Source of the DNA: Promicromonospora sp. Populi
GTDB taxonomy: Bacteria > Actinomycetota > Actinomycetes > Actinomycetales > Cellulomonadaceae
Reading direction: 5' to 3'
Length of the DNA: 64,000 bases
Assembly: GCF_041081105.1 (NCBI RefSeq)
Contig: NZ_CP163528.1
Coordinates: 2,170,001 to 2,234,000, forward strand
Each line of letters starts with the position of its first letter. Within the stretch, counting starts at the first letter, position 1. Below the pieces are notes generated by a model. That model was not told the DNA's origin. It worked only from the letters and a program-made list of their open reading frames with translations, and did not search any database. The position numbers and the translations under genes were made by a program. This document shows positions 16,286-53,001 of this stretch, piece by piece.

Positions 16286-16324
16286 GTGTTGCGGAGAGTG
16301 CACATCGTCTACTCAGCGCAACAC
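16286..16324. repeat. Palindromic repeat family, copy D (degenerate)
   Basis: GTGTTGC at 16286-16292 pairs with GCAACAC at 16318-16324 around a core containing GTCTACTCAGC. The core matches the reverse complement of those at 21974-22008 and 26226-26250. It lies downstream of zur and upstream of the FAD oxidase gene. Pairing inside the loop is weaker than in the copies at 26211 and 52939. Confidence 0.65.
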
Positions 16325-16407
16325 GTTCCCCGGACGCGGTCTTTCCCCGGACCCTCGCCACGCCGCCACCCCGGGGAGCGCGCCGCTGAGTGACCCCGCG
16401 GGCGCCG

Positions 16408-16806
16408 TCAGCCGGCGGAAGAAGCGCGGCAGTCCGCGCAGGTGCCCCACAGCTCGACCGTGTGCTCGATGTCGTCGAAGCCCTGGGCGGCGGCGACCTT
16501 CGAGGCCCAGGCCTCGACCGTGGGGCCGTCGATCTCGACGGTCCGGCCGCACATCCGGCACACCAGGTGGTGGTGGTGCTCGCGGCGCGCGCACCGGCGG
16601 TAGAGGCTCTCGCCGTCCTCCGCGCGCAGCACGTCCACCTCGCTCGCCTCGGCAAGCGCCTGCAGCGCCCGGTACACGGTCGCCAGCCCCACGGACTCGC
16701 CGCGGGCGCGCAGGGTCTCGTGCAGCTGCTGGGCGGAGCGGAAGTCGGCGAGCTCGTCGAGCGCCTCGACGACGGCGGTCCGCTGGCGGGTCATACGAGC
16801 GGCCAT
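16408..16806 (-). CDS. zur: Fur-family regulator, zinc uptake repressor
   Basis: A 132-residue Fur-family repressor. The N-terminal winged helix includes TRQRTAVVEAL and VGLATVYRALQAL. The dimerisation part has REHHHHLVCRMCG with regulatory His residues and one CxxC, and a second CADC near the end; together these make the structural zinc site. The ATG at 16806 overlaps the znuB stop as ATGA, so it is translated with the transporter genes, which fits Zur rather than Fur. The tandem boxes at 19521-19557 upstream of znuA are its likely operators, giving autoregulation. Confidence 0.9.
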   Translation of the reverse strand: MAARMTRQRTAVVEALDELADFRSAQQLHETLRARGESVGLATVYRALQALAEASEVDVLRAEDGESLYRRCARREHHHHLVCRMCGRTVEIDGPTVEAWASKVAAAQGFDDIEHTVELWGTCADCRASSAG

Positions 16807-17741
16807 CAGCGGCACTCCTTCGCGGCGGCCAGCGCACGTTCCGTTGCGGCGGCCGGCAGTTCGACGTCGTCGGGCAGGTCAGGATGCGGGTCGTGCGCGG
16901 GGCGCCGTCGGGTCAGGAGCGGTGCCACCAGGGAGACCACCGCGTACACGGCGATGGCGAGCACAACGATAGTCGCGCCGGGCGAGACGTTGTACCAGTA
17001 GGTGATGCTCAGGCCGGTCACACAGACCACGACGCCGACGACGCACGCCGTGAGCATGGTGCGGCCGAACGCGTGCGTGACCTGCTGCGCCACGGCCACC
17101 GGCACGATCATGAGCGCGCTGACCAGCAGCAGCCCGACGACACGCATCGCGACGGTCACGGTGAGGGCGGAGACGACCGCGACGACGATGTTCAGCGCCC
17201 ACACGGGCAGCCCGGAGGCGATCGCGAACTCCTCGTCGTGGCTCACGGCGAACAGCGCGTGCCGCAGTCCGACGCCGATGGCCAGGACCACGAGCGAGAG
17301 CACCACGGTGAGCCAGAGGTCGCCGTCGGACACCGTCGAGATCGAGCCGAACAGGTACTGCATGAGGTTCCCGGAGGAGCCGCCGGCGATCCCGATGAGC
17401 AGGACGCCGCCCGCGATGCCGCCGTAGAACATGATGGCCAGGGCCAGGTCGCCGGAGGTACGGCCGCGGCGTCGGACCACCTCGATGAGGACCGAGCCGA
17501 CCACCGCGGCGACCACCGCGCCGGGCACCGCGAGGGCGTCGTTCGGCGTCAGGCCCATACCCGCGCCGACGAGCCAGCCCAGCGCCACACCGGTCAGGGC
17601 GACGTGCCCGATCCCGTCACCGAGCAGGGAAAGCCGGCGCTGCACCAGGTACGTGCCGACGACGGGTGCGGTCACGCCCACGAGCAGCGCGGCTACCAGG
17701 GCGCGCTGCATGAACGGGTCGGTCAGCATGAGCGCGATCAC
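16806..17741 (-). CDS. znuB: Zinc ABC transporter, permease
   Basis: A 311-residue ABC-3 family permease with eight or nine hydrophobic helices. The family segment YLVQRRLSLLGDGIGHVALTG is near residue 31, and GLLLVSALMIVPVA near residue 200. Members move Zn(II) or Mn(II) across the membrane; zinc is inferred from the adjacent Zur and from a His-rich ZnuA. The C-terminal tail is polar and contains HDPHPD, which might bind metal. Stop and start overlap its neighbours by four bases on both sides. Confidence 0.93.
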   Translation of the reverse strand: MIALMLTDPFMQRALVAALLVGVTAPVVGTYLVQRRLSLLGDGIGHVALTGVALGWLVGAGMGLTPNDALAVPGAVVAAVVGSVLIEVVRRRGRTSGDLALAIMFYGGIAGGVLLIGIAGGSSGNLMQYLFGSISTVSDGDLWLTVVLSLVVLAIGVGLRHALFAVSHDEEFAIASGLPVWALNIVVAVVSALTVTVAMRVVGLLLVSALMIVPVAVAQQVTHAFGRTMLTACVVGVVVCVTGLSITYWYNVSPGATIVVLAIAVYAVVSLVAPLLTRRRPAHDPHPDLPDDVELPAAATERALAAAKECR

Positions 17742-18562
17742 GGGCGCACCTCCAGGTCGAGGGCCCGGGACTCGGTGGTCTCCAGAGCGTTGTCGTCGGT
17801 GTGCGGGTGCTGATGCTGGTGACCCGCCCGGTCGTGGTCGTGCCGGGCGGGCGGCGGGGCGCCGTCGTGCACCACCTGGCCGTGCCGCAGCACCACGGCG
17901 CGCGTGACGAGCGGTGCGAGCTCACCGAGCTCGTGCAGCACGACGAGCACCGTGAGGCCGCCGTCGACCAGCCGCCGCATGGTGGCGGCGAACGCCTCCT
18001 GGCTGGCTACGTCCACGCCGGCGACGGGCTCGTCCAGGACGAGCAGGTCCGGCTCACGGACCAGAGCGCGCGCGATGAGGATGCGCTGCTGCTGCCCGCC
18101 CGAGAGCAGGTGCACCGGGTCGCGCACGCGGTCGGCGAGGCCCACCTGTTCGAGGGCCGCCGCCACCCGGTCGCGCCAGCCGCGCGGCAGCCGCAGGCGG
18201 TGGCCGTGCAGCAGGCCGGAGGCGACGACCTCCTGGACGGACGAGGGGATGCCGCCGCCCGCGCCCGCCCGCTGGGGCACGTAGCCGATCCGGCTCCAGT
18301 CGACCGCCGCGGCGCGCCGGCAGCCCCCGAGGGGCGCGCCGAGCAGGCGCACGGTGCCCTCGGACGGTGGGTTGATGCCGACCAGCGTCCGCACGAGGGT
18401 GGACTTGCCGGAGCCGTTCGCGCCGAGCAGCGCGACGACCTCGCCGGGAAGGACCGTCAGGTCGACCCCGCGCAGGATGTGGCTCGCGCCCACACGAAAG
18501 TGCAGGTCGCGGGCCTCGATGACGGGTTCGCTCGACTCGGTCACCTGCCTAGTGTCCGTCAT
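17738..18562 (-). CDS. znuC: Zinc ABC transporter, ATPase
   Basis: A 274-residue ATPase. Walker A GANGSGKST near residue 40, Q-loop in GYVPQRAG, signature LLSGGQQQR, Walker B LLVLDEPVAGVD and switch His in VVLHELGEL. The ATG at 18562 overlaps the znuA stop as ATGA; the reading frame stays open upstream through znuA but that is out-of-frame sequence. The C-terminal 40 residues are His-rich (ARHDHDRAGHQHQHPHTDD), unusual for an ATPase and perhaps a cytoplasmic zinc-sensing or zinc-buffering tail. Confidence 0.93.
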   Translation of the reverse strand: MTDTRQVTESSEPVIEARDLHFRVGASHILRGVDLTVLPGEVVALLGANGSGKSTLVRTLVGINPPSEGTVRLLGAPLGGCRRAAAVDWSRIGYVPQRAGAGGGIPSSVQEVVASGLLHGHRLRLPRGWRDRVAAALEQVGLADRVRDPVHLLSGGQQQRILIARALVREPDLLVLDEPVAGVDVASQEAFAATMRRLVDGGLTVLVVLHELGELAPLVTRAVVLRHGQVVHDGAPPPARHDHDRAGHQHQHPHTDDNALETTESRALDLEVRP

Positions 18563-19521
18563 TCGCAGACCAGTCCGTCCTCCAACGCGGCCAGGTTGGT
18601 CTGCATCACGGAGACGTAGTCCTCGCCGGCGGCGGTCGCCTCCTCGGACAGGCCCTCCAGCGGGTCGAGCACGGCGGTGCTCACACCCAGGTCGGAGGCG
18701 AGCGTCTCGGTGACCTTCGGGCTCACGAGGGTCTCCGAATAGAGGGTGGTGATGCCGCGCTCCTCGACCAGGTCGCCGATCTCGCGCAGGCGGGCCGGGG
18801 AGGGCTCGGCCTCCGGGTCGAGCGCGGAGATGCCGACCTGCTCCAGGCCGTACCGGTCGGCGAGGTAGCCGAACGCGGCGTGGCTGGTCACCAGGGTCGC
18901 GCCCTGGCAGGCGGCGAGGCCGTCGGCGAACTCCTGGTCGAGGTCGCCGAGCTGCTGGTCCAGGCGCTGGGCCCCGGCGGCGTACTCGTCGGCGTGCTCC
19001 GGGTCGGTTGCGGCCAGCTCGTCCGCCACGGCCTGGCCGACGGCGGCCAGCTTGCTCGGGTCCAGCCAGAAGTGCGGGTCGGCGGTGCCGTGCTCGTCGC
19101 CCTCCTCGGCGTGCTCCTCCTCCGTCTCTTCCGTCTCCTCCGTGTGCTCCACCAGTCCGGCGGCGTCCGCGGCGTCGACCACGTGCTCGGGGGCGCGGGA
19201 CTCGACGCCCTCGTCGACGGCGGTCTGGAAGCCCGACAGGTAGACCACCAGGTCGGCGGTGCCGATCTCGCGGACCTGCGCCGGGGAGAGCTCCAGGTCG
19301 TGCGGCTCGGCGGCCGGCGGCGTGAGGTTGTCGACCGTGACCAGGTCGCCGCCGATCTGCTGCGCCACGTACTGGAGCGGATAGAACGAGGCGAGCACGG
19401 TGACGCCGTCGTCCTGCGCCGCGGAGCCGCCTGGTCCCTGAGCCGAGCAGCCCGCGAGGGTCGCCGTGGCGGCGAGGACGAGGCTGGTCAGGGCTGCGCC
19501 GGAGACGCGAGTCGAAGTCAT
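18559..19521 (-). CDS. znuA: Zinc-binding lipoprotein
   Basis: About 320 residues of the cluster A-I metal-binding family. The lipobox ends LAGCS near residue 24. Metal ligands expected from family knowledge are seen in [10 protein letters not shown], in [15 protein letters not shown] and in the Asp/Glu region near the end (TLYSET). A charged loop ([18 protein letters not shown]) precedes DPHFWLDP, the typical His-rich zinc-collecting loop. I choose the ATG at 19521, which directly follows the Zur box; an in-frame GTG at 19536 would lie inside the box. No ribosome site is visible, so the message may be leaderless. First gene of znuA-znuC-znuB-zur. Confidence 0.93.
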
Positions 19522-19557
19522 GAGAACGATTCTCACGCTTGTTGAGAACGATTGTCA
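19521..19557 (-). promoter_or_regulatory. Tandem Zur boxes at the znuA start
   Basis: TGAGAACGATTCTCA at 19521-19535 is a 15-base palindrome with one central unpaired base, and a second copy, TGAGAACGATTGTCA, lies at 19543-19557. Spacing of 22 bases puts both on one DNA face. They match the actinobacterial Zur operator type (TGA-A-CG-TT-TCA). The first box shares its end base with the znuA start codon, so repression would block both promoter and start. Confidence 0.88.
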
Positions 19558-19678
19558 AAGATCGGCTGCGAGAGGTGCGTCACCGGTCGGTAGGCCGCTT
19601 ATTTCGCGCGGGCTGCAACCGGCCCGGACGGTAGGCTGGGCGGACATTGTTTCCGCCTGTTCCCCTGGAGAGACCCTC

Positions 19679-21084
19679 GTGTCCGACAAGTCAGTGCGCT
19701 CTGCGCAGACCGCCAAGCTCGACGCCGTCGTCTCGCTCGCCAAGCGACGAGGTTTCGTCTTCCCGTCGGGTGAGATCTATGGCGGAACGCGTTCTGCGTG
19801 GGACTACGGCCCGCTCGGTGTGGAGCTCAAGGAGAACATCAAGCGGCAGTGGTGGCGTGCGATGGTCACGAGCCGGGACGACATCGTCGGCCTCGACTCG
19901 GCGGTCATCCTGCCCCGTCAGGTGTGGGTCGCCTCCGGCCACGTCGGCGTGTTCACCGACCCGCTGACCGAGTGCCTCTCGTGCCACAAGCGGTTCCGCG
20001 AGGACCAGATGATCGAGGAGTTCGAGGAGAAGAAGGGCCGGCCCCCGAGGGCGGCCTCGCCGAGATCGCTTGCGCCAACTGCGGCACCCGCGGCCAGTGG
20101 ACCGAGCCCCGCGACTTCAACATGATGCTGAAGACGTACCTCGGCCCGGTCGAGGACGAGTCCGGCCTGCACTACCTGCGCCCCGAGACCGCGCAGGGCA
20201 TCTTCGTGAACTTCGCCAATGTCGCCGGTGCGGCGCGCAAGAAGCCGCCGTTCGGCATCGGCCAGATCGGCAAGTCGTTCCGCAACGAGATCACGCCGGG
20301 CAACTTCATCTTCCGCACGCGCGAGTTCGAGCAGATGGAGATGGAGTTCTTCGTCAAGCCGGGCGAGGACGAGGAGTGGCACCAGTACTGGATCGACTAC
20401 CGCACCAACTGGTACACGGACCTCGGCATCTCGGCCGACAACCTGCGCCACTTCGAGCACCCGAAGGACAAGCTGTCGCACTACTCGACCCGCACCGTGG
20501 ACATCGAGTACCGCTTCGGCTTCCAGGGCAGCGAGTGGGGCGAGCTCGAGGGCATCGCGAACCGTACGGACTTCGACCTGAAGACCCACACGGAGAGCTC
20601 GGGCAAGGACCTGGAGTACCGCGACCCGGTGACGAACGAGAAGTACTTCCCGTACGTCATCGAGCCGGCCGCGGGCCTGACCCGGTCCCTCATGGCCTTC
20701 CTCGTCGAGGCGTACGGCGAGGACGAGGCGCCGAACACCAAGGGCGGCGTCGACAAGCGCACGGTCCTGCGCCTCGACCCCCGGCTGGCCCCTGTGAAGG
20801 CGGCGGTGCTGCCGCTGTCCAAGACGGCGGACCTGCTCCCGGCGTCGGAGGCCCTGGCCGCCGAGCTGCGCAAGTACTGGAACGTCGACTACGACGTGAC
20901 GCAGGCCATCGGCAAGCGGTACCGCCGGCAGGACGAGATCGGCACGCCGTTCTGCATCACCGTCGACTTCGACACCCTCGACGACCAGGCGGTGACGATC
21001 CGGCACCGCGACAGCATGGAGCAGGAGCGTGTGTCGCTGGACAAGGTGGTCGGCTACCTCGCCGGTCACCTCGTCGGGGCCTGA
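19679..21084 (+). CDS. glyS: Glycyl-tRNA synthetase (apparent frameshift near 20040)
   Basis: Class II synthetase of the single-chain dimeric type, charging tRNA-Gly. GTG start at 19679 after GGAGAG. Seen: [18 protein letters not shown] and the zinc-type motif CLSCHKRF in the first frame (to about 20040); then [38 protein letters not shown] and a C-terminal anticodon-binding domain in another frame. One extra base in GGCCGGCCCCCGAGG (20036-20050) joins them as [11 protein letters not shown], and the total length is one short of a multiple of three. The enzyme is essential and no second copy is seen, so a consensus error is likeliest. It is monocistronic. Confidence 0.92.
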
Positions 21085-21105
21085 CGCTCAGGCTCGATCA
21101 CCGCA

Positions 21106-21858
21106 TCATTCGCGCGCGTCCTGCGCCTGCTCCCGCAGCAGCCGCAGGACGCGCGCGGCATGCCGGTCCGTCGTGTCGATCTCGTGGAGCGGCTGGACCC
21201 GCAGCGGCGCATGCTCGCCGACGACGAGGACCGCGCGCCTGCTGCCCTCTGCAGGCACGAACTGCACGGTGAAGGTACGCAACCAGATCTCGAGCAAGAA
21301 CCGCCCGCCCTCGCCGAGCTCGACGAGCCGAGCAACCCCTTCGGGCGAGGTGACGCCGCCCAACGGGTAGGACCGCCCCACCGGCGTAACTGCGGCGGCG
21401 CCAGTGCGGACAAGGTCCGCGAGCCACGACACCGCCTCGGGACCGTCGGGCAACGCGAGCTCGACAGGCTCGGCCAAGGAGATGGGCGCTCCGAGCACCG
21501 CCGCAGCCGCGAGACCCTCGAACCGGTACTCAAGGTCCACCAGCCCTTCCATGAGCGAAACGGTCATGCTCAGGCTGTCGGCGGCGCTCGTGTCGTCGGC
21601 ACGAGTCGCGACGGCGCGGCGAATATCGTCGTCGAGCGGCTCGAGCTCGATCTTCATCTGTTTGCCCGTAGCGGCCAGGAGAACCGTCAGCATCTCCCAT
21701 GACGGGGAGCGCGCCCCCGTCTCGATCGCCGCCACAGTGCCCCGCGAGACGCCAGCGCGTTCGGCCAGGCTCGCCTGCGTCTGCTGAGCGGCAAACCGAG
21801 CGTCTTTCACGAGCTGAGCTACGTTCACCTGCGCGCCTTCGAGTTCCACAAGACCCAT
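21106..21858 (-). CDS. XRE-type regulator with an unknown C-terminal domain
   Basis: About 250 residues. Residues 8-66 are a Cro/CI-type helix-turn-helix (QTQASLAERAGVSRGTVAAIE followed by SWEMLTVLLAATG). The remaining 180 residues form an alpha/beta domain (YRFEGLAAAAVLGAPISLAE, then GRFLLEIWLRTFTVQFVP) that resembles antitoxin-type nucleotidyltransferase-like domains, but I cannot place it firmly. I choose the ATG at 21858; the frame is open further upstream but lacks coding character there. It faces glyS tail to tail with only 21 bases between. No toxin-like partner gene is adjacent. Confidence 0.7.
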   Translation of the reverse strand: MGLVELEGAQVNVAQLVKDARFAAQQTQASLAERAGVSRGTVAAIETGARSPSWEMLTVLLAATGKQMKIELEPLDDDIRRAVATRADDTSAADSLSMTVSLMEGLVDLEYRFEGLAAAAVLGAPISLAEPVELALPDGPEAVSWLADLVRTGAAAVTPVGRSYPLGGVTSPEGVARLVELGEGGRFLLEIWLRTFTVQFVPAEGSRRAVLVVGEHAPLRVQPLHEIDTTDRHAARVLRLLREQAQDARE

Positions 21859-21973
21859 CGTGCCCGGTGCGGTGCACCGATGCGGAGCACCCGGGTCCAG
21901 CCTGTGGAAAACCGCTGCCGACGCATTGGGGTCGGGGTCACCGGTCGGGGCAACAGTAAGAATCCGAAGTGCG

Positions 21974-22008
21974 CTGCGCTGAGTAGACGATGTCAACGCA
22001 GAGCAACG
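21974..22008. repeat. Palindromic repeat family, copy C
   Basis: The core GCGCTGAGTAGACGATGTC followed by AACGCAGAGCAAC matches the core at 26221-26255 at most positions. The outer arms pair poorly here, so the copy looks decayed. It lies between the divergent XRE gene and the siderophore permease gene, where a terminator would not be expected. Confidence 0.65.
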
Positions 22009-22119
22009 GACCTGGCAGATGTAGGCACTCTCCCAGCCCGCCGCGATCCGCGACGGCCAGATCATCACCCGGGCGAGGTCGAGCCGGGCGTACCGACCAT
22101 CTCGCGCATTGTGGAATGC

Positions 22120-22138
22120 TTAGGCAATGCTTACCTCA
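22120..22138 (+). promoter_or_regulatory. IdeR/DtxR-like iron box over the first permease start
   Basis: TTAGGCAATGCTTACCTCA matches the DtxR/IdeR consensus (TTAGGTTAGGCTAACCTAA) in both outer half-sites. The ATG at 22127 is inside the box, so bound repressor would cover the start codon. It fits iron-repressed siderophore uptake. Confidence 0.7.
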
Positions 22139-23173
22139 CCTGCGGCTGCGCCTGCGGGGCGCCGTGAAGGTGCGGAAGCCGTAGCTCACCGTGCCCGACG
22201 TCGGACGCTCGCGTCGCTCACTGCAGTCGCCGCCCTGCTGCTCGTCGTCCTGGCGAGTCTTGCGCTCGGCGTCCGCGACATCAACCCGGCCGAGGTGTGG
22301 CGAGCCCTGACGGCGCCGGTCGCCGGGTTCATGGACCACGACGTGGTTCTGGAGCAGCGTCTGCCGCGCACCATCGTGGGGCTCGCGGCCGGGGTCGCGC
22401 TCGGTTTGTCGGGCACCCTGATCCAGGGGGTCACCCGCAACCCGATCGCCGACCCGGGCCTGCTGGGCCTGAACTCCGGCGCGTCGCTCGCGGTGGTCTG
22501 CGCGGTCTGGCTGCTCGGCATCACGTCGCCCATCGGCTACGTGTGGTTCGCGTTCTTCGGCGCCGCCGTCGCCGCCGCGATCGTGTTCTCGGTGGGCCGT
22601 GGCCAGCCGGTGCGCCTCGCGCTCGTCGGCGCAGCCGTGACCGGGCTCATCACGCCGCTCATCACCCTGGTCCTGCTTCGCGACCAGGGAGCCTTCAACA
22701 TGTTCCGGTTCTGGTCGGTCGGCTCCCTGACCGGCCGCGGCCTGGACACGGTGCTCTGGCTGTGGCCGTTCATCGTGGTCGGTCTGGTCCTCGCCGCCGT
22801 GCTCGCGCACCGGCTCAACATGCTGGCCCTCGGCGACGACGTCGCGGCCTCGCTGGGGCAGCGGGTCGGCACTACGCGGACCTTCGCAGCGATCGCCATC
22901 GTGCTGCTCGCCGGCACGGCGACCTCGCTCGCCGGGCCGATCGCGCTGGTCGGGCTCGTGGTGCCGCACGCGGCCCGCAGGCTCGTCGGCACGGACTACC
23001 GCTGGATCATGGCGATCAGCGCGTTCCTGGGCCCGGTGATGCTGCTGGCGGCCGACGTGCTCGGGCGGCTTGTCCTGCCCCGGTCGGAGCTCCCCGCCGG
23101 TGTGGTCGCGGCGCTGATCGGCGCGCCGGTGCTGATCGCCGTGGCCCGCGGCCGCAACGTGGTGGGGGCCTGA
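22127..23173 (+). CDS. Iron-siderophore ABC transporter, permease 1
   Basis: A 348-residue FecCD/BtuC-family permease with about ten hydrophobic helices. Family segments: RLPRTIVGLAAGVALGLSG, TRNPIADPGLLGLNSGASLA and LAGPIALVGLVVPHAAR, the last being the ATPase-contact loop. It works with the permease and ATPase encoded next (stop and start share TGATG) to import ferric siderophore across the membrane. The ATG at 22127 lies inside an iron-box-like sequence with no ribosome site, suggesting a leaderless message. The siderophore type cannot be told. Confidence 0.92.
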   Translation: MLTSPAAAPAGRREGAEAVAHRARRRTLASLTAVAALLLVVLASLALGVRDINPAEVWRALTAPVAGFMDHDVVLEQRLPRTIVGLAAGVALGLSGTLIQGVTRNPIADPGLLGLNSGASLAVVCAVWLLGITSPIGYVWFAFFGAAVAAAIVFSVGRGQPVRLALVGAAVTGLITPLITLVLLRDQGAFNMFRFWSVGSLTGRGLDTVLWLWPFIVVGLVLAAVLAHRLNMLALGDDVAASLGQRVGTTRTFAAIAIVLLAGTATSLAGPIALVGLVVPHAARRLVGTDYRWIMAISAFLGPVMLLAADVLGRLVLPRSELPAGVVAALIGAPVLIAVARGRNVVGA

Positions 23174-24219
23174 TGAGCACCGTCACCACCGCGGCCACCA
23201 CCGCGTCAGTCGTCGCGGGCCTGCGTACCGCCCGGCGGCGCCGGCAGATCGTCGTCGTGGCCGGGATGGTCCTCCTGGTGCTGGCCGCCGGGACCGGTGC
23301 CCTGCTGGTCGGGGCCGCCGGGCTGACCCCCGGGCAGGCGATCGCGGGCGCCCTGGGCCTCGGCGACCCGGGCGACGTCTTCATCATCCAGATGCTGCGC
23401 CTGCCCCGCATCGAGGCGGCCGTCGTGATCGGCGCCGCGTTCGGCCTGGCGGGCGCCCTGTCCCAGTCGACCCTGCGCAACCCGCTCGCCTCCCCCGACA
23501 TCCTCGGCATCTCCAGCGGCGCGAGCCTCGGGGCCGTGGTCGGCCTGCTCGTCCTGGGGCTGAGCGGGGTTGCGCTGTCTGGCCTGGCGTTCACGGGCGC
23601 AGTCGCCGTCGCGATTGCGATCTGGCTGCTGGCCTGGCGCAAGGGACTGCACTCGATCCGGTTCGTGCTGGTCGGCGTCGGTTTCGCCTACCTGTGCTCA
23701 TCCCTGCTGGCCTGGGCCATGGCCCGGTCGCAGGAGCACGAGGCGGCGGCCGTGCTGCTCTGGGTCGTCGGCTCCGTCTCCGACATCCGCGGCGAACAGC
23801 TCGCGCTTGTCGCCGCCGGGACGCTCGTGCTGGGCGTGGCGGTCACGATCGTCGCGCGGACGCAGGGGCCGCTCTCGCTCGGGGACGACAATGCGCGCGC
23901 CCTCGGTGTGCGCGTGGACGCTGCACGGGTCGGCTCCCTGCTGCTCGCCGTAGCCCTCGTCGCACTCGCCACGAGCGCCGCGGGCCCGCTGGCGTTCGTC
24001 TCCCTGGTAGCCCCCGCCATCGCCCGCCGCCTGGTGAACGACGGCGGCGCGGCGCTGGCCGCATCCGCCGCGACCGGCGCCGCCCTGACCCTGGTGGCGG
24101 ACGTCATCGGGCAGCACGGGCTGCTCGGGGTCGCCGCACCCGTGGGCGTCGTCACCGGGCTCGTGGGCGCCCCCTACCTGCTGTGGCTGCTCGCCACCAA
24201 CGAGAAGAGGAGCCGATGA
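23173..24219 (+). CDS. Iron-siderophore ABC transporter, permease 2
   Basis: A 348-residue FecCD-family permease that pairs with the preceding one. Family segments are RLPRIEAAVVIGAAFGLAG, STLRNPLASPDILGISSGAS and SAAGPLAFVSLVAPAIAR. Start at the ATG overlapping the upstream stop; the frame is open further upstream but only as a shadow of the first permease. Its own stop overlaps the ATPase start (ATGA). About ten membrane helices. Two different permeases plus one ATPase is the usual arrangement for FepD/FepG/FepC-type systems. Confidence 0.92.
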   Translation: MSTVTTAATTASVVAGLRTARRRRQIVVVAGMVLLVLAAGTGALLVGAAGLTPGQAIAGALGLGDPGDVFIIQMLRLPRIEAAVVIGAAFGLAGALSQSTLRNPLASPDILGISSGASLGAVVGLLVLGLSGVALSGLAFTGAVAVAIAIWLLAWRKGLHSIRFVLVGVGFAYLCSSLLAWAMARSQEHEAAAVLLWVVGSVSDIRGEQLALVAAGTLVLGVAVTIVARTQGPLSLGDDNARALGVRVDAARVGSLLLAVALVALATSAAGPLAFVSLVAPAIARRLVNDGGAALAASAATGAALTLVADVIGQHGLLGVAAPVGVVTGLVGAPYLLWLLATNEKRSR

Positions 24220-25007
24220 CCACCCTGCGCGCCGAGAGCGTCAGCCTGGGCTACGACGGCCTGCGGGTCATCGAGGATCTCGACCTGACGCTCCCCGACG
24301 GCAAGATCACCGCCGTCGTCGGGCCGAATGCCTGCGGCAAGTCCACGCTCCTGCGCGGGCTGGCCCGCCTGCACCCGCTGGAGAGCGGCCGCGTCACGCT
24401 CGACGGCGCCGACGTCACGGCCATGCCCCGCAAGGAGCTGGCCCGCAGGGTCGGCATGCTGCCGCAGTCGTCGATCGCGCCCGACGGCGTCCGCGTCGCC
24501 GAGCTCGTCGCCCGCGGCCGGTACCCGCACCAGGGCTGGTTCGGCAGGCACTCGTCAGACGACGACGCCGTGGTCACCACCGCGCTGGAGTCCACCGGGG
24601 TCGCGGACCTCGCGGACCGGCCGGTCGCCGAGCTGTCGGGCGGGCAGCGCCAGCGCGTGTGGATCGCGATGGTCCTGGCGCAGCAGACGGACATCGTGCT
24701 GCTCGACGAGCCGACGACGTTCCTCGACGTGCGCCACCAGCTCGACCTGCTGGACCTGCTCACGGAGCTGAACCGGGAGGGCGGCACCACGGTCGCGATG
24801 GTGCTGCACGATCTCAACCTCGCCGCCCGGTACGCCGACCACCTGGTCGTGATGTCGGCGGGACGGATCGTCGCAGAGGGCGCACCGTCGGACGTGCTCA
24901 CCCGCGAGGTGGTCAGCGAAGCGTTCAGCCTGCAGTCCCAGGTGGTGCCCGACCCGGTCTCCGGATCGCCGCTCGTGGTACCCGTGGGCCGCTACCACTC
25001 GAGCTAG
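24216..25007 (+). CDS. Iron-siderophore ABC transporter, ATPase
   Basis: A 263-residue FepC/FhuC-type ATPase. Walker A GPNACGKST near residue 36, the Q-loop in GMLPQSSIAPDGV, signature ELSGGQRQR, Walker B IVLLDEPTTFLDVRHQ and switch His in VLHDLNLAARYADH. The DEPTTFLDVRHQ wording is typical of siderophore ATPases. Third gene of a translationally coupled set; the binding-protein gene follows after 132 bases under its own iron-box-like site. Confidence 0.93.
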   Translation: MTTLRAESVSLGYDGLRVIEDLDLTLPDGKITAVVGPNACGKSTLLRGLARLHPLESGRVTLDGADVTAMPRKELARRVGMLPQSSIAPDGVRVAELVARGRYPHQGWFGRHSSDDDAVVTTALESTGVADLADRPVAELSGGQRQRVWIAMVLAQQTDIVLLDEPTTFLDVRHQLDLLDLLTELNREGGTTVAMVLHDLNLAARYADHLVVMSAGRIVAEGAPSDVLTREVVSEAFSLQSQVVPDPVSGSPLVVPVGRYHSS

Positions 25008-25071
25008 CTGCCACCCGAAGTAACCCACGTCACCAAGACCACCCCAATTCCGCAACATCGCCGTGACCTAA

Positions 25072-25090
25072 TCTGGTTAGGGTTACCTCA
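25072..25090 (+). promoter_or_regulatory. IdeR/DtxR-like iron box before the binding-protein gene
   Basis: The sequence TCTGGTTAGGGTTACCTCA at 25072-25090 agrees with the DtxR/IdeR consensus at about 14 of 19 positions, best in the right-hand part. It lies 50-68 bases before the GTG at 25140, in the expected promoter position. Confidence 0.6.
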
Positions 25091-25139
25091 TCTCGACCGG
25101 CACTCGCCGGTCGTTCGTCTGACCACCCCAGGAGAAACC

Positions 25140-26186
25140 GTGCGCCCTCGCCGTTCCCTCACGGCGGCCGTCGGCCTTGTCGCCGCGTCCGCCCTCGCCC
25201 TCGCGGGCTGCGCGTCCGAAGCCCCGGCAGGGGGCGACACGACGCCGTCGGCCGAAGCCTCCGGTGCGACCGACGAGTTCCCCCTGACCATCGAGCACGC
25301 CCTGGGCGAGACCACCATCGAGGAGGCGCCCGTGCGCGTCGCCACGTGGGGCTGGGGTTCGACCGAGGCCGCGATCGCGGCTGGCGTCTACCCCGTGGCC
25401 GTCGCCGAGCAGACCTGGACGGTAGGCGAGGGCAACCTCCTGCCGTGGGTCGAGGAGGCCTACGACGAGGCAGGCGTGGAGCATCCCACCGTGCTGACGG
25501 ACGCCGAGTCCGGCGCGAGCGTGCCCTACGAGGAGTTCGCGGCCGCCGAGCCCGACGTCATCATCGCCACCTACTCGGGGCTCACGCAGGAGCAGTACGA
25601 CCTGCTCAGCGAGATCGCCCCGACCGTCGCCTACCCGGAGACGCCGTGGCAGACGCCGTGGGACGAGATCATCACCGCCACGGACGACGCCCTGGGCCGC
25701 AGCGCCGCGGGCGACGCCAAGGTCGAGGAGATCAACCAGTACCTGGCCGACCAGGCCGCCGCGCACCCCGAGTTCGAGGGCCAGACGTTCGCCGCGATCG
25801 TCGACTCGCCCAGCGAGGGCCTCGTGTACGTCTACCGAGCGGGTGACCCGCGCGCCGGGTTCCTCGAGGAGCTGGGCCTGGAGACCGCACCGGCCGTGGA
25901 AGAGCTCGCGCCGGACGACGAGTTCTACTACTCGCTCTCCTACGAGGAGCTCGACCAGCTCGACTCGGACATCGTCGTCGCCTACACCTACACCGAGGAG
26001 GAGGCGGCAGCACTGCCGGACAAGGAGGAGCTGCAGGCCCTGCCCGCCGTCGCGGACGGCATGGTTGTGCAGCAGGTCGGCACCATCGCCGTCTCCGCGG
26101 TCTCGCCCCCGACGGCGCTCTCGGTGGAGTACCCCGAGGGCATGCCGAAGCTGATCGAGTCCCTGACGGCGACGCTCGCCGAGTAG
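25140..26186 (+). CDS. Iron-siderophore ABC transporter, binding lipoprotein
   Basis: A 348-residue binding protein of the FepB/FhuD-type fold. GTG start preceded by AGGAG. Signal with lipobox LAGC near residue 24. The mature part begins with a typical family strand pair (FPLTIEHALGETTIEEAPVR) and RVATWGWGSTEAAIAAG; later it has AAAEPDVIIATYSGLTQEQ and PTVAYPETPWQTPWDE. It captures the ferric siderophore outside the membrane and hands it to the permeases. It is placed last and has its own likely promoter, allowing higher expression than the membrane parts. It ends before the palindromic terminator at 26211. Confidence 0.92.
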   Translation: MRPRRSLTAAVGLVAASALALAGCASEAPAGGDTTPSAEASGATDEFPLTIEHALGETTIEEAPVRVATWGWGSTEAAIAAGVYPVAVAEQTWTVGEGNLLPWVEEAYDEAGVEHPTVLTDAESGASVPYEEFAAAEPDVIIATYSGLTQEQYDLLSEIAPTVAYPETPWQTPWDEIITATDDALGRSAAGDAKVEEINQYLADQAAAHPEFEGQTFAAIVDSPSEGLVYVYRAGDPRAGFLEELGLETAPAVEELAPDDEFYYSLSYEELDQLDSDIVVAYTYTEEEAAALPDKEELQALPAVADGMVVQQVGTIAVSAVSPPTALSVEYPEGMPKLIESLTATLAE

Positions 26187-26210
26187 GGTCCGTCGGTAAG
26201 ACTCCATTAG

Positions 26211-26265
26211 TTCGGGGTCGGTTGCGCTGAGTAGACATCTTCTACGCAGAGCAACCGACCCCGAA
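26211..26265. repeat. Palindromic repeat family, copy B; probable bidirectional terminator
   Basis: Bases 26211-26225 and 26251-26265 are perfect 15-base inverted arms. Between them GTAGA (26231-26235) pairs with TCTAC (26241-26245). It lies between the convergent siderophore-binding protein gene (ends 26186) and uppS (ends 26286). The outer arms resemble those of the copy at 52939 but differ by changes made on both sides. Confidence 0.88.
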
Positions 26266-26285
26266 TTCGTACTGTCTCCCCCGGA

Positions 26286-27086
26286 CTACTTTGCGGTCTC
26301 TGGAGTATCCAGCGCCCCGCCGTAGCGCCGGTCGCGCTTCGCGTACTCCTCGACGGCGTTCCACAGGTGCCGGCGGTCGACGTCGGGCCAGGGCTCCTCC
26401 AGGAACACCATCTCCGCGTATGCGGCCTGCCACAGCATGAAGTTCGAGGTGCGCTGCTCGCCGGACGAGCGCAGGAACAGGTCGACGTCGGGCAGGTCGG
26501 GCAGGTAGAGGTACTTCTGCACGGTCTTCTCGCTGATCCGCTTCGGGTCCAGGTTCCCCGCCGCCACGTCGCGCGCCATGGCCGCCGCGGCGTCGGCCAG
26601 CTCGGCCCGGCTGCCGTAGTTCACGCACATCGTCAGGGTGCAGAGGTCGTTGTCCTTGGTGCGCTCCTCAGCCTCCTGGAGCACCCCGATCACCGACTTC
26701 CACAGCTTCGGACGGCGCCCGGCCCAGCGGATCCGCACGCCCCACGACGCCATGACGTCGCACTGACGCTGCATCACCTCTTGCGTGAAGTTCATCAGGA
26801 AGCGCACCTCCTCTGGCGAGCGCTTCCAGTTCTCGGTGCTGAACGCGTACGCCGAGACGTACTCGACGCCGACGTCGACGGCCCCGGCGACCACGTCGAG
26901 CAGCGAGTGCTCACCGGCGCGGTGCCCCTCGATCCGGGGCAGGCCCCGGGAGTTGGCCCACCGCCCGTTGCCGTCCATGACGACGGCGACGTGGCGCGGC
27001 AAGAACTCCTTCGGGATCCGCGGGGCGACCGCGCCGGACGGGTGCGGGTACGGCGCCACCAGCTGCCGGCTCGGGGTCCGGGCCAT
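26286..27086 (-). CDS. uppS: Isoprenyl transferase (cis-prenyl diphosphate synthase)
   Basis: A 266-residue cis-prenyltransferase, making the polyprenyl diphosphate carrier used for cell-wall precursors. Seen: [13 protein letters not shown] with the catalytic Asp, [26 protein letters not shown], and the C-terminal [19 protein letters not shown]. All conserved family blocks are present. The ATG at 27086 touches the recO stop, so the two are co-translated. Actinobacteria often carry a second, shorter-chain enzyme; chain length cannot be set from this sequence alone. Confidence 0.96.
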
Positions 27087-27832
27087 CAGCGCTCCACCAT
27101 CTTCAACGATCGCAACGTTCTCTCCAGGTAGTACTGGCCATAGGCAGCGACGATGCCGCTCGCCTCCTTACGGTGCCGTGCGACGGACGCGTCGGCGGTC
27201 GCCCAGTCGCCCGCGAGCAGCGAGGACAGCAGGGCGAAGGTCTCGGGTGCGGGCGCGGTGGAGCCCGGCGGCCGGCAGCGCGGGCAGACGGCGCCACCCT
27301 GGGCCACGTTGAACGAGTGGTGCGGCCCGGGCTCGCCGCACCGCGCACAGTCTTCGAACGACGGCGCCCAGCCCGCCACCGCCAGCGCACGCAGCAGGTA
27401 CGAGTCGAGCACGAGGCCGCCCTCGTGGTGCCGCTCGGACAGCGCCCGCAGCGCCCCGGCGAGCAGCCAGTACTGCTGCACCGCGGGCTCGTGCTCCTGC
27501 GCGACCAGCCGGTCGGCCGCTTCCAGCATCACGGTGCCCGCCGTGTACAGGGCGTAGTCCTGGCTGATGGTGCGGGCGTACGCACCGATGGTCTCGACCT
27601 GCGTCACCGTGTCGAGCCCCATGCCGGGCCGAGGGCTGCGGCCCGTGTGCAGCTGCACGTCCACGCCCATGAACGGCTCCAGCCGCGCCCCGAACTTGGA
27701 CGACGTGCGCCGCACGCCCTTGCCCACCCCGCGCACCTTGCCGTGCTCGCGGGTCAGGAACGTGACGATACGGTCCGCCTCGCCCAGCTTCTGGGTGCGC
27801 AGCACTATCGCGTCGTCTCGGTACAGGGGCAC
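27086..27832 (-). CDS. recO: DNA repair protein RecO
   Basis: A 248-residue RecO. The N-terminal OB fold starts with [21 protein letters not shown] and [17 protein letters not shown]. The C-terminal helical part has a zinc site with CARCGEP and [10 protein letters not shown], four Cys in total. RecO loads RecA onto SSB-coated single-stranded DNA in the RecFOR pathway. It lies directly upstream of uppS, the standard actinobacterial order, and repeated DNA follows its start at 27851-27912. Confidence 0.96.
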
Positions 27833-27850
27833 GCTGCCATTCTGCCCCCA

Positions 27851-27912
27851 GTCACCGACACTCCTCGTCAGCCCACGACACTCTTCGTCAACGCTCCGTC
27901 AACGCTCCGTCA
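27851..27912. repeat. Short tandem repeats between recO and the next gene
   Basis: Two 20-base units (27851-27870 and 27871-27890) share CGACACTC-TCGTCA, followed by two exact 11-base units ACGCTCCGTCA (27891-27901 and 27902-27912). The last unit contains the stop codon of the minus-strand membrane protein gene at 27910. Slippage-prone sequence with no evident function. Confidence 0.7.
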
Positions 27913-28539
27913 GCGCTCCACGAACCGCGTGCCGTCCGGCGTGAGCTCCGGCTCCCACACGAACCGGTGGATCACGTGCTTCTCGAGGACGCCGCGCACG
28001 ATCAGCGCGACGGTGCCCCAGATCGCGAAGAGCAGGAGGGTCTGCAAGAAGTTGTTCGCGATCAGCTCGAACCCGGTCAGCGCCAGGGTGGGGATCAGGA
28101 ACAGCAGGCCGAGGAACGCGGGCAGCAGCTGCACCCCGACCCACTGCACCACCGACAACAGATCGATCCGCCGCTCCGCGACGACGCCGTGGAAGTCCAT
28201 CACGTTGACCACGTGGTCCGCCCGCCACTTGGCGACGTGCCGGGCCACCGTCCACTGCGCGCCGCGCGCGTCGAGGTCGGAGCTGCCCGACGGCAGCCAG
28301 ATCCCGAGCACCTGATGGATCTCCGCGGGCGTCAGGTAGCCCTTGTCGAGGATCGTCAGGCTGTGTACGGGCGGCTGGCGGGTGTTCGTCGGCAGCACGA
28401 GCGCGGAGAGGAACAACAGCACACCACCGGTGCCCAGCAGCGCAACGAGCGCATCCGGGACCCAGGGCAGGAGCAGGGTTGCGGCAGCGAAGGCCAGCGC
28501 GCCGAGCAGCGCACAGATGATGCGGTTCTTCATGGTCAT
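27910..28539 (-). CDS. Unknown membrane protein
   Basis: A 209-residue protein with two hydrophobic segments near the N-terminus (ALLGALAFAAATLLLPW and ALLGTGGVLLFLSALVLP) and two more near residues 127-180 (LSVVQWVGVQLLPAFLGLLFLI and LQTLLLFAIWGTVALIV). Between them is a soluble segment of about 70 residues with DKGYLTPAEIHQVLGIW. The end is polar. No family is recognised. It is in the same orientation as recO and cydAB but separated by 70-80 bases on each side, so it may be independent. Confidence 0.65.
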   Translation of the reverse strand: MTMKNRIICALLGALAFAAATLLLPWVPDALVALLGTGGVLLFLSALVLPTNTRQPPVHSLTILDKGYLTPAEIHQVLGIWLPSGSSDLDARGAQWTVARHVAKWRADHVVNVMDFHGVVAERRIDLLSVVQWVGVQLLPAFLGLLFLIPTLALTGFELIANNFLQTLLLFAIWGTVALIVRGVLEKHVIHRFVWEPELTPDGTRFVER

Positions 28540-28612
28540 GGTGAGCAGGACTTTACCGGCATCTCGGGACGCATTGGAGCGATAAGTCCGTTTCGAGACT
28601 GAAGTTCCGGCC

Positions 28613-45746: not shown

Positions 45747-45811
45747 GATGGGTAAAACTTTTCCGAGCCGTCAGGCGAGGCGACCGGTCCGCGGCACGTG
45801 GGCGATGTCCG

Positions 45812-45916: not shown

Positions 45917-45917
45917 T

Positions 45918-47192: not shown

Positions 47193-47193
47193 C

Positions 47194-47436: not shown

Positions 47437-47446
47437 CCATGTCAGC

Positions 47447-47512
47447 GTACCGTGACATTGCGGCGATGTCCACGTATCGTGACATCGCTGCAATGTCACG
47501 GTACGTGGACAT
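47447..47512 (-). promoter_or_regulatory. hipBA operator, large palindrome
   Basis: Bases 47447-47470 and 47481-47504 form 24-base inverted arms with one mismatch. Inside are two repeats of the form GTGACAT-N7-ATGTCAC: an imperfect one at 47452-47473 and an exact one at 47479-47499. A further GTGGACAT lies at 47505-47512. It starts 11 bases upstream of hipB, where HipB autoregulatory sites are expected. Sequence differs from the E. coli operator TATCC-N8-GGATA. Confidence 0.85.
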
Positions 47513-47521
47513 CTCTGCCGG

Positions 47522-48664: not shown

Positions 48665-48744
48665 GCGCACATGCTGCCAGGCCTGGAAGTCGCCGAGATC
48701 TGGATCCAATGCAATACCGAGCCGCCATGAGACAGAACCAGTGC

Positions 48745-48824
48745 GGAGGTCCGCTTCCAGCAAGGCCTGACGCATGCTTCGGAACCAAGAAACATGCCGG
48801 ATCGCATTCTGGAAGCGGACCTCC
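48745..48824. repeat. 80-base element with 16-base terminal inverted repeats
   Basis: GGAGGTCCGCTTCCAG at 48745-48760 is perfectly inverted at 48809-48824, with 48 bases between. The inner part has a weaker inverted match (GCATG...CATGC). It occupies most of the 176-base gap between the acetamidase and amidase genes. It could be a terminator, an operator pair or a small mobile remnant; no target duplication is clear. Confidence 0.6.
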
Positions 48825-48840
48825 ACCAGGCGGCCGGGTC

Positions 48841-49980: not shown

Positions 49981-50201
49981 GGGCCGAGAGTACACAGCCG
50001 GCCGATGGGCTAGCCCGGCAGCAGCGCCCGCGGCGGCACGACGGCGACCGCCCACGACGTCGTCGGACAGGACGATCGGGCCGTGCACCTAGGCCTCGAC
50101 GTGGCCGTCCAGGAGGTCGTGAGCGCGGGCCGCGGTGTCGGCGTCGGCCATCGATGGTGACCGGCCAGTCCATGCCCGGAGGCTACCTGGCGGCCCGCAC
50201 G

Positions 50202-50238
50202 CAGACGCTCGGGCCACGGAAAGTGGCCCGAGCGTCTG
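50202..50238 (-). terminator. Hairpin terminator after the LAXTG surface-protein gene
   Basis: Bases 50202-50217 and 50223-50238 are perfect 16-base inverted arms with a 5-base loop, 15 bases beyond the minus-strand stop at 50253. The following 49981-50201 stretch holds no convincing gene. Confidence 0.9.
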
Positions 50239-50252
50239 ACGTCAGGGGCAGC

Positions 50253-51212: not shown

Positions 51213-51321
51213 GTGTCCCCCTGTATCTGGTGATCCTGCATACCCGGCGTCTGGGGAGCAGACGCGAATCACCCTGACGGAAATATCGGGTGAATTCAAG
51301 GAAATCCGGTATGTTTCCACC

Positions 51322-52935
51322 ATGATCGTGCCAGGCTCAGGGGAAGCCCCGCAGATCCATCCGCTCGAGCCGAACGACCCGCAGGAGCTGGGCGGTTACC
51401 CGCTGCTCGGCCGGATCGGATCCGGCGGGATGGGTGCGGTCTACCTCGCAGAAACCCGTACCGGCCGGAAGCTGGCCCTCAAGGCCATCCTGAAGGAGCA
51501 CGTCCAGGACCCGGAGTTTCGCGATCGCTTCCGCCGGGAGGTCGCCGCGGCCATGAAGGTGCGCGGCCGGTTCCTCGCCACCGTGATCGACGCCGATCCG
51601 GACGGGGCGCAGCCGTGGCTGGCCGTCGAGTACGTAGCGGGTCCCGGCCTGTCCGCCGTCGTACGTGCGCGAGGCCCGCTGCCCGAAGCCGAGGTGCGCA
51701 GCGTGCTGGCCGGCGTGGCGGAGGCCCTGCGGGCCGTGCACCAGGTCGGCATCGTGCACCGCGACCTCAAACCGTCCAACATCCTGCTCGGCCAGGACGG
51801 TCCGTTTGTCATCGACTTCGGCATCGCCCAGGTGTCCGACACGACGTCGCTGACCCGCACGGGCCTGAAGGTCGGCACGCCCGCCTTCATGGCCCCCGAG
51901 CAGGTCCGCGGCAGCCTCGCGACGCCCGCGGCCGACGTCTGGGCGCTGGGCGCCGTAGCCCTCTACGCCGCGACCGGCCAGCGCGCGTTCGGCGAGGGTG
52001 ACACCACCGTCGTCTACTACCGCGTGGTCCACGAGGAACCGGACCTGACCGGGTGCCCCGAGTGGCTGCTCCCGCTGGTGCGCGCCTGCCTGGCCAAGGA
52101 TCCTGCAGACCGGCCGGACCTGCAGGAGGTCCTCGACTTCCTGAACGAGGTCCCGGCCGGCCTGCGGACGGCGACCACAAAGATCGTCCCGGGACCTGGC
52201 ATCCCAGACATCGACCCCCTCGACTACGAGGACGACGCGACGGCGCTGCGCAACGACGAGACGGTGCTCAAGGCGACGACGGCCCCGACAACCCCGGAAC
52301 CCGGTCCGGAGCAGGCCGCGCCGAGCCGACGCCGGCTGTCCCGCCCGGTCGTCTGGCTCCTCGCGGCCGCCGGAGTGCTGATCGTCGGCGGTGCCGCAAC
52401 CGCCGTCGTGCTGGGTATGCGCGGCGGCTCGGCCGAAGCCGGGCCCTCTTCGGCGCCGTCCGGTGTGGGCGAGCCGACGGCGTCGCCGTCGGCCTCCGTG
52501 TCTGCGGATCCCCCGCCCGTCGTCGACGAGTGCCTGCTGGGCCGCTGGGAGCAGCGGGACCTGGCCACGCAGCTGCAGGCGGGCGACGAGACCGTCGAGA
52601 CCACGGGCTGGAACGGGCGGATGCTTGAGTACCGCGCCGACGGCACCCAGCTCGTCACCTTCGACGACGCCGAACCGCTGCGCGCTACGACCTCGGCCGG
52701 CGAGTACATCGAGACCTGGACCGGCACGGCGACCTACACCGTCTCGACGGACGCCGGCATCCTCACGTTCGAGGACGTCGACTTCGGCCGGACGGAGGTC
52801 ACCCGGGAGCTCGGCGACGAGCGCCGGACGTTCGAACCGCAGGGCCTGTCCCAGCCGCTGGAGTACACCTGCGACGAGACGACGCACACGCAGTGGGCCG
52901 ACAACTTCGAGGCCACGTTCACCCGCGTCGACTGA
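51322..52935 (+). CDS. Membrane Ser/Thr protein kinase
   Basis: A 537-residue Hanks-type kinase. Glycine loop RIGSGGMGAVYLAE, ATP Lys54, catalytic HRDLKPSN (Asp148), DFG Asp165 and GTPAFMAPEQ. One membrane helix near 345-367, then a Pro/Ser stalk and an extracellular domain of about 140 residues with WEQRD, a beta-rich lipocalin-like pattern and two Cys. No PASTA repeats. The start is the ATG at 51322; TATGTT at 51310-51315 is a good -10 element placing transcription start at or next to the ATG, so the message is probably leaderless. Strongly similar kinase domain to 8665-10485. Confidence 0.92.
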   Translation: MIVPGSGEAPQIHPLEPNDPQELGGYPLLGRIGSGGMGAVYLAETRTGRKLALKAILKEHVQDPEFRDRFRREVAAAMKVRGRFLATVIDADPDGAQPWLAVEYVAGPGLSAVVRARGPLPEAEVRSVLAGVAEALRAVHQVGIVHRDLKPSNILLGQDGPFVIDFGIAQVSDTTSLTRTGLKVGTPAFMAPEQVRGSLATPAADVWALGAVALYAATGQRAFGEGDTTVVYYRVVHEEPDLTGCPEWLLPLVRACLAKDPADRPDLQEVLDFLNEVPAGLRTATTKIVPGPGIPDIDPLDYEDDATALRNDETVLKATTAPTTPEPGPEQAAPSRRRLSRPVVWLLAAAGVLIVGGAATAVVLGMRGGSAEAGPSSAPSGVGEPTASPSASVSADPPPVVDECLLGRWEQRDLATQLQAGDETVETTGWNGRMLEYRADGTQLVTFDDAEPLRATTSAGEYIETWTGTATYTVSTDAGILTFEDVDFGRTEVTRELGDERRTFEPQGLSQPLEYTCDETTHTQWADNFEATFTRVD

Positions 52936-52938
52936 CCA

Positions 52939-53001
52939 CGAATCTGGGGTGGGTTGCTCTGCGTAGATGTTGTCTACGGAGAGCAACCCACCCCAGATTC
53001 G
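52939..53001. repeat. Palindromic repeat family, copy A; probable bidirectional terminator
   Basis: Bases 52939-52960 and 52980-53001 form 22-base inverted arms with few or no mismatches, and GTAGA/TCTAC pairs inside. It lies between the convergent kinase gene (ends 52935) and leuA (ends 53048). The core matches the copies near 26221, 21974 and 16286. Confidence 0.9.

What the first reader, a model, noticed from the sequence alone, without database searches (positions are those of the whole stretch)
16286..53001. Four dispersed copies of a palindromic element with a shared core
The core (TTGC-CTG-GTAGA-N5-TCTAC-CAG-GCAA) occurs at 52939-53001, 26211-26265, 21974-22008 and 16286-16324, all between genes. 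The core is the same family each time, whether in convergent (two), divergent (one) or co-directional (one) gaps. This is more than ordinary terminators, which do not share sequence. It may be a genus-level REP/BIME-like family used as transcription ends or as a non-autonomous mobile element.
Basis: seen in the sequence. Interest (0 to 1): 0.72.

Follow-up and report, generated by a model that had tools for sequence, protein, structure and literature searches.

The report
Exchangeable hairpin repeats at gene ends
A soil bacterium carries about two dozen scattered copies of a roughly 93-base mirror-image DNA repeat, mostly just behind genes, and in some gaps between facing genes related species carry quite different mirror-image repeats instead, as if the hairpin shape were kept while its sequence is swapped.

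Summary
The four palindromes are real and related. They belong to a family, here "R1": about 93 bp, one dyad, a conserved 33-bp centre, covarying arms. The genome (genus Promicromonospora by the titles) has 24 copies at E < 1e-5. All 13 genomes searched in the genus match, with about 3 to 52 copies; in the family sample only 2 of 25 genera do. Copies avoid divergent gaps and mostly lie within 120 bp of a stop codon. No Y1 (RAYT-type) transposase rings in 13 genomes; close half-sites never occur alone.

The more interesting result goes beyond the finding. In three convergent gaps chosen because the window has a hairpin there, 34 of 34 sequences from the genus carry a hairpin above all 20 shuffles, but its sequence differs: R1, other repeat families, or a stem seen once. 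Two of six convergent gaps in the window lack one.

Best reading: a copied palindrome used as a portable 3'-end hairpin, probably a two-way terminator. Termination and the copying enzyme are inferred. RAYT-REP membership is not met. New member of a known kind.

The parts
52922..53018 (.). R1 copy 1, convergent gap between a protein kinase gene (ends 52935) and an isopropylmalate synthase gene (stop at 53048)
   Evidence: model match E 7e-21; fold z -11.5; Pfam of neighbours
26190..26286 (.). R1 copy 2, convergent gap between a periplasmic binding protein gene (ends 26186) and an undecaprenyl diphosphate synthase gene (stop at 26286)
   Evidence: model match E 2e-18; fold z -7.9; R1 also in the same gap of G007 and G003; Pfam
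21942..22038 (.). R1 copy 3, decayed, divergent gap upstream of a FecCD transport gene; place shared with 7 other genomes
   Evidence: model match E 5e-12; no fold above shuffles; ortholog group of 8 genomes
16257..16353 (.). R1 copy 4, partly decayed, co-directional gap just past the stop (16408) of a Fur-family gene
   Evidence: model match E 4e-9; fold z -3.5; R1 in the same gap of G007 and G003
52954..52986 (.). 33-bp conserved core of copy 1
   Evidence: 1 mismatch
26222..26254 (.). 33-bp conserved core of copy 2
   Evidence: 0 mismatches
21974..22006 (.). 33-bp conserved core of copy 3
   Evidence: 2 mismatches
16289..16321 (.). 33-bp conserved core of copy 4
   Evidence: 4 mismatches
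594..651 (.). hairpin of another repeat family (GAGGTAGAAC type) in a convergent gap; a counterpart, not an R1 copy
11921..11962 (.). hairpin without family match in a convergent gap; relatives carry a GGTCGAGC-family hairpin in this gap in 3 of 11 found

Best explanation
R1 is a genus-level family of dispersed palindromes of about 93 bp. Shown: common descent of the copies, maintained dyad pairing, intergenic placement biased to the 3' side of genes, orthologous retention at 15 places and replacement by other hairpins at others. Inferred: (1) once transcribed, a copy folds into a long hairpin that ends or protects the transcript, in both directions where genes converge; (2) selection keeps a hairpin in such gaps but not its sequence, so that families substitute for one another; (3) the family spread by an occasional copying event carried out in trans by an unidentified enzyme, earlier rather than now, with decay and loss afterwards.
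For: Pairing: 26 of 38 pairs changed on both sides, covariation score 0.278 against 0.132 in shuffles (0 of 500 reach it) and at most 0.104 when slid; at core pair 37/61, 41 of 47 copies are U-A, G-C or C-G and 6 are U-G or unpaired. Placement: 39 convergent, 37 co-directional, 11 divergent, 5 at a locus edge, 2 in a reading frame of 94; without the 8 copies of one orthologous place and the 7 edge/frame rows, 3 of 79 divergent against 71 of 262 background gaps, p = 1.6e-6; stop codon within 120 bp of the centre in 31 of 37 co-directional and (nearest) 33 of 39 convergent copies. Exchange: 34 of 34 hairpins above shuffles in three convergent gaps with changing sequence. Copying: nearest relative in the same genome in 30 of 93, 14.1 expected; centre type differs by clade, 30 of 36 against 7 of 42, p = 1.6e-8. 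Sense-strand bias to G-U over A-C, 64 to 39, p = 0.018.
Against: No transcript data. No U-tract, and the terminator scan of 14000-29000 lists neither copy 2, 3 nor 4. Copy 3 sits in a divergent gap in 8 of 13 genomes and no longer folds here. The three compared gaps were chosen because the window has a hairpin there; 2 of 6 convergent gaps of the window (7228-7342 and 21084-21106) have none above shuffles, and 3 of 15 co-directional and 2 of 6 divergent gaps do. Gap 4 shows a hairpin above shuffles in 3 of 13 genomes only, not in the window. RNA folding of the G001 copy of gap 1 gave z +0.2. No mobilising gene, no empty site with a target duplication. The G-U result and several p-values use orthologous, hence dependent, copies.
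Confidence: 0.6

Rival explanations
1. A purely selfish non-autonomous element (MITE-like) that gathers behind genes because insertions there do least harm; the hairpin serves its own transposition, not the host.
For: Copy number ranges from about 3 to 52 between congeners; copies nested between arms of other palindromes, with exactly 93 nt inside at three sites of which two are orthologous; clade-specific centres; ends (CGGGG-RA / TY-CCCCG) conserved as sequence though poorly paired.
Against: No isolated outer arm in 13 genomes, no Y1 transposase, no match in plasmid or phage records or viral contigs; best dispersed within-genome pair only 85% identical; paired changes are kept between orthologs; unrelated hairpins fill the same gaps.
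Confidence: 0.2
2. The paired changes come from hairpin-templated repair between the two arms at the DNA level (quasipalindrome correction) and need no selection on RNA.
For: Double changes with few intermediates at core pair 37/61; orthologs L062 and L056 differ by one such double change at 92.5% identity.
Against: Positions -23 to -17 are inside the palindrome but pair in only 18-45% of copies, which wholesale arm correction should have prevented; sense-strand G-U excess (weak).
Confidence: 0.1
3. A binding site of a dimeric DNA-binding or chromosome-organising protein.
For: Strictly conserved 33-bp dyad; two clusters of four copies in 37 and 43 kb (0 of 20000 simulations for both; widths chosen after seeing the data).
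Against: Half-sites would vary independently, yet the two arms change together; no lone half-sites; arms vary between loci.
Confidence: 0.06
4. A dyad of DNA-uptake signals co-opted as terminators, as in Neisseria and Pasteurellaceae.
For: Inverted conserved sequence in terminator-like position, the arrangement described in PMC1852404 (abstract and passages seen).
Against: Uptake signals occur mostly singly and in the hundreds or more; here 23 of 23 half-sites with 0-1 mismatch lie inside palindromic copies, and the 6 lone ones with 2 mismatches do not exceed the reversed control of 10.
Confidence: 0.01

Closest known systems
REP / REPIN / BIME elements with RAYT (Y1) transposases
   Same: Dispersed intergenic palindromes, single strand able to fold, many copies per genome
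   Different: No Y1 transposase in 13 genomes; one palindrome of about 93 bp, not 20-40 bp as in PMC3733652 (abstract and passages seen); no GTAG or CGTC tag at the foot (GTAG occurs inside the stem)
Intergenic stem-loop (SLS) repeat families of bacterial genomes (PMC1590033; abstract and section 9 read)
   Same: Stable stem-loops concentrated at 3' ends and in convergent gaps, some of them repeated families
   Different: A genus-level family here with gap-by-gap comparison showing replacement by other families
ERIC and Correia/NEMIS-type palindromic elements (recalled, no call)
   Same: Roughly 100-bp intergenic palindromes without own gene
   Different: No sequence relation tested; no known target duplication here
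Bidirectional intrinsic terminators with compensatory evolution (PMC5381666; passages seen)
   Same: Convergent genes, paired changes in the stem
   Different: Those terminators are not described there as a shared repeat; R1 has no U-tract
DNA-uptake-signal dyads in terminators (PMC1852404; passages seen)
   Same: Conserved inverted sequence in terminator position
   Different: No lone half-sites

Membership tests
REP/BIME with RAYT | RAYT (Y1, PF01797) gene in the genome or close relatives | tested here: not met
   0 of 13 genomes; the control rings in 5 of 14 known genomes
REP/BIME with RAYT | 20-40 bp palindrome with GTAG or CGTC tag at one end | tested here: not met
   93-bp unit, edges CGGGG...CCCCG; definition from PMC3733652 passages
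REP/BIME with RAYT | dispersed, intergenic, more than about 20 copies | tested here: met
   24 copies; 2 of 94 genus copies overlap a predicted frame
MITE | autonomous element with the same terminal repeats | tested here: not met
   no isolated outer arm with up to 3 mismatches in 13 genomes; strongly diverged ends would be missed
MITE | target-site duplication at an empty-site comparison | tested here: inconclusive
   no clean empty site: other hairpins or remnants fill the gaps
Bidirectional terminator | stable hairpin close behind stop codons, enriched between convergent genes | tested here: met
   not met for copy 3
Bidirectional terminator | U-tract after the stem (canonical form) | tested here: not met
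   for copies 2-4 (14000-29000 only); sequence of copy 1
Bidirectional terminator | transcripts end at the element | not testable with these tools
   needs Term-seq or a reporter
DNA-uptake-signal dyad | single copies far outnumber dyads | tested here: not met
   23 of 23 close half-sites lie in dyads
Known RNA family (Rfam) | match at gathering score | tested here: not met
   0 matches in the window

The most novel reading that the evidence does not exclude
Convergent gene ends in these actinobacteria are a niche in which several unrelated mobile palindrome families compete and displace one another, each arriving by a hairpin-directed insertion that does not use a RAYT enzyme and then working as the terminator of both genes; R1 would be one such portable terminator, able to land in the centre of a resident palindrome.
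Probability: 0.2. Interest if true: 0.75.

Novelty: new member of a known kind. Interest (0 to 1): 0.5.

Why it matters
Gene ends are usually treated as slowly evolving punctuation. If the exchange seen in these gaps is general, terminators in GC-rich actinobacteria are supplied and replaced by repeat families, which would link repeat dynamics to transcript ends and would offer ready natural experiments (same two genes, different hairpins) for measuring what a terminator needs. It would also raise the question of which enzyme copies such palindromes where Y1 transposases are absent.

Tried and rejected
RAYT association: rejected, no Y1 gene. Autonomous partner with the same ends: not found. 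Uptake-signal reading: rejected. Spread on phages or plasmids: no match. Rfam: none. Anticorrelation of family numbers: GGTCGAGC sites per genome (3 to 223, both strands summed) show no clear opposition to R1 copy numbers, judged by eye. AGTGCTGG, first taken for a dispersed family, was seen at one place only, in four genomes, and is not counted as dispersed. Empty sites with target duplication: none clear. Literature: five searches aimed at palindromes, convergent gene ends, REP and terminators, one on Promicromonospora with palindromic, one on REPIN/RAYT with actinobacteria, and two for letters of the GGTCGAGC family (none) gave no paper on this family or on exchange of hairpin families; only listings were seen except for the papers named. 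The open-access library lacks most subscription journals. The first fold of gap sequences used letters that I copied from earlier outputs and had shortened in several rows; it is superseded, which cuts the gaps by script.
Full report
WHAT IS THERE. The window lies at 2,170,001-2,234,000 of a single contig of 5,224,924 bases. The exact core pattern in 84,980 species' genomes gives 29 stretches, all titled Promicromonospora, from five strains; contigs of G007, G003, G004, G010 and G011 have the same lengths as contigs of AC04, iranensis, kroppenstedtii, sukumoe and thailandica, and the genome search places them in the window's genus, so the genus is Promicromonospora. The four sites of the finding are genuine; details are in the observation check.

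ANATOMY. Forty-eight copies with flanks, centred on the core, show conservation and dyad symmetry from about -30 to +62 relative to the first base of the core, about 93 bp. From outside in: CGGGG-RA ends, conserved as sequence but poorly paired just inside (positions -23 to -17 pair in 18-45% of copies), a variable but paired stretch, GGGGTGTG, and TTGC-K-CTG-C-GTAGAC around a centre of about three bases. An ungapped alignment of 47 copies (one was left out because it brought in a gap) has 82.1% of cells paired against 72.8% in column shuffles, 26 of 38 pairs with changes on both sides, and a covariation score of 0.278 against 0.132 (0 of 500 shuffles) and at most 0.104 when slid. The structure was my own, drawn from the symmetry of these sequences, which favours it against the slid versions.

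HOW MANY AND WHERE. A covariance model finds 24 distinct places at E < 1e-5 in the own genome, plus one weak at 0.007. In 13 genomes of the genus, matches on both strands number 48, 10, 14, 68, 56, 8, 6, 105, 23, 56, 42, 38 and 6 for G000 to G012, hence about half as many copies (only 150 of about 2000-2600 candidates per genome were scored, so these are lower bounds). In a family sample of 121 genomes 12 match at E <= 1e-7, in 2 of 25 genera: 10 of the own genus and 2 of another (stricter filters). No match in viral contigs, plasmid or phage records. In the own genome the copies are clustered: four within 37 kb (p = 0.013), and two groups of four within 43.5 kb in 0 of 20000 simulations, widths chosen after seeing the data.

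CONTEXT. For 94 copies from the genus (one search gave 99 places; 5 repeats of the same site dropped by hand) a simple gene caller gives 39 convergent, 37 co-directional, 11 divergent, 5 at a locus edge and 2 inside a predicted frame. Eight of the 11 divergent copies are one orthologous place, that of copy 3. Leaving those 8 and the 7 edge/frame rows out, 3 of 79 are divergent against 71 of 262 gaps of 70 bp or more in the same loci (p = 1.6e-6), and 39 of 79 convergent against 55 of 262 (p = 2.6e-6; the background contains the copies' own gaps; copies are partly orthologous). In co-directional gaps the centre is nearer the upstream stop than the downstream start in 28 of 37 (p = 0.0026), with a stop within 120 bp in 31 of 37; in convergent gaps the nearest stop is within 120 bp in 33 of 39. 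On the sense strand of co-directional copies mismatched stem cells are G-U 64, A-C 39, other 160 (p = 0.018, dependent copies).

DESCENT AND COPYING. Flank comparison gives 15 orthologous groups of R1 copies. Orthologs keep the pairing through paired changes, for example a G-C to T-A change in the core between the own copy L062 and L056. The nearest relative of a copy is in the same genome in 30 of 93 cases, 14.1 expected, but the best dispersed pair in one genome is only 85% identical, so spread looks old. The bases beside the centre differ by clade: A..T in 30 of 36 copies of G004/G008/G009/G010 and 7 of 42 of G000/G007 (p = 1.6e-8; tree from 12 gene blocks). Half-sites with 0-1 mismatch lie in palindromic copies in 23 of 23 cases; with 2 mismatches 7 of 13 do, and the 6 others do not exceed 10 reversed-control hits. 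Isolated outer arms: none in 13 genomes. Y1 transposase: none in 13 genomes.

OTHER PALINDROMES. Several copies lie between the arms of another palindrome: at three sites (two of them orthologous) GTCGCACGGCGTGTCGC arms enclose exactly 93 nt; one copy of G009 lies between GGTCGAGC-family arms; one of G008 and a three-copy array in G009 lie between ACTGGGTA-type arms. Random pairing of arms from different copies gives similar scores now and then (99th percentile 39, maximum 85; the five best real ones score 38-46), because the same arm families recur, so the nesting rests on inspection rather than on that score.

EXCHANGE IN ORTHOLOGOUS GAPS. I compared the gaps of copy 1, copy 2 and the unrelated hairpin at 11916-11968 across the genus (10, 12 and 12 of 13 genomes could be anchored). 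The best hairpin beats all 20 shuffles in 34 of 34. In gap 1: R1 (own, G007), a GAGTGCTGG hairpin (G002, G011, G012; also G008; seen at this place only), GGTCGAGC family (G003), GAGGTAGAAC family (G005), GTTGTGGG family (G006) and two unassigned stems (G001, G010): seven states, hence at least six changes. In gap 2: R1 (own, G003, G007), GAGGTAGAAC (G002, G005, G011, and flagged in the 1.2-kb gap of G006), GGTCGAGC (G009, G010, G012, and beside R1 in G003), two unassigned. In the third: GGTCGAGC in G003, G006 and G012, unassigned stems in nine. Cautions: these gaps were chosen because the window has a hairpin there. In the window itself 4 of 6 convergent, 3 of 15 co-directional and 2 of 6 divergent gaps (15-700 bp) have one above shuffles; the convergent gaps 7228-7342 and 21084-21106 do not. 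A fourth convergent gap (583-655) could be anchored in 2 relatives only, with hairpins of other sequence. In the gap of copy 4, 3 of 13 genomes are above shuffles; R1 is found in three (own, G007, G003) and GAGGTAGAAC in G005, G006 and G009, and by eye in G002; by eye G012 keeps a left-arm remnant. A divergent control gap is above shuffles in 4 of 13. RNA folding of hand-copied gap letters gave z +0.2 for G001 in gap 1.

MECHANISM. Most likely a long hairpin that ends or protects transcripts, from both sides where genes converge, and that selection keeps as a shape rather than a sequence. Shown: shape, placement, paired change, exchange. Inferred: termination, copying in trans by an unidentified enzyme. 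The lack of a U-tract and the conserved divergent place of copy 3 speak against a uniform terminator role.

COMPARISON. PMC1590033 (abstract and section 9 read) reports that stable stem-loops prefer 3' ends and convergent gaps in 40 genomes and that some are repeat families; PMC1852404 and PMC5381666 (passages) treat uptake-signal dyads and compensatory evolution in terminators; PMC3733652 (passages) defines tagged REPs. R1 is therefore a new family of a known kind. The exchange of hairpin families in fixed gaps is the part I did not find described, within the searches named in Tried and rejected.

Noticed in passing
window 594-651; L120, L123 and others: A second palindrome family built of tandem 16-bp units (GGCGAGGTAGAACTGT type), 94 distinct single sites in the fetched loci, common in convergent gaps.
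   Followed up: partly
genus-wide; e.g. G003:C30:57055-57100: A third family, GGTCGAGCYNGTCGAGACC, with 3 to 223 sites per genome and only 14 in the window's genome.
   Followed up: partly
L163 1372-2191 (G009:C1): Array of three R1 copies alternating with ACTGGGTA-type palindromes, like a mosaic element.
   Followed up: partly
window 47439-47518: Two overlapping long inverted repeats with shared GATGTCCACGTA/CGTGACAT words behind a stop codon; not an R1 copy.
   Followed up: no
window 50202-50238: Perfect 16-bp inverted repeat in a divergent gap.
   Followed up: no
window 19536-19798: TGAGAACGATTCTCA dyad in a divergent gap, kept in most of 13 genomes; looks like a metal-regulator operator (recalled).
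   Followed up: no
window 21735-22295: Beside copy 3, relatives carry a small reading frame that the window's genome lacks (by eye).
   Followed up: no
L110, L127 (G006): The gap of copy 2 holds about 1.2 kb of extra sequence in G006 with a gene-like insert.
   Followed up: no
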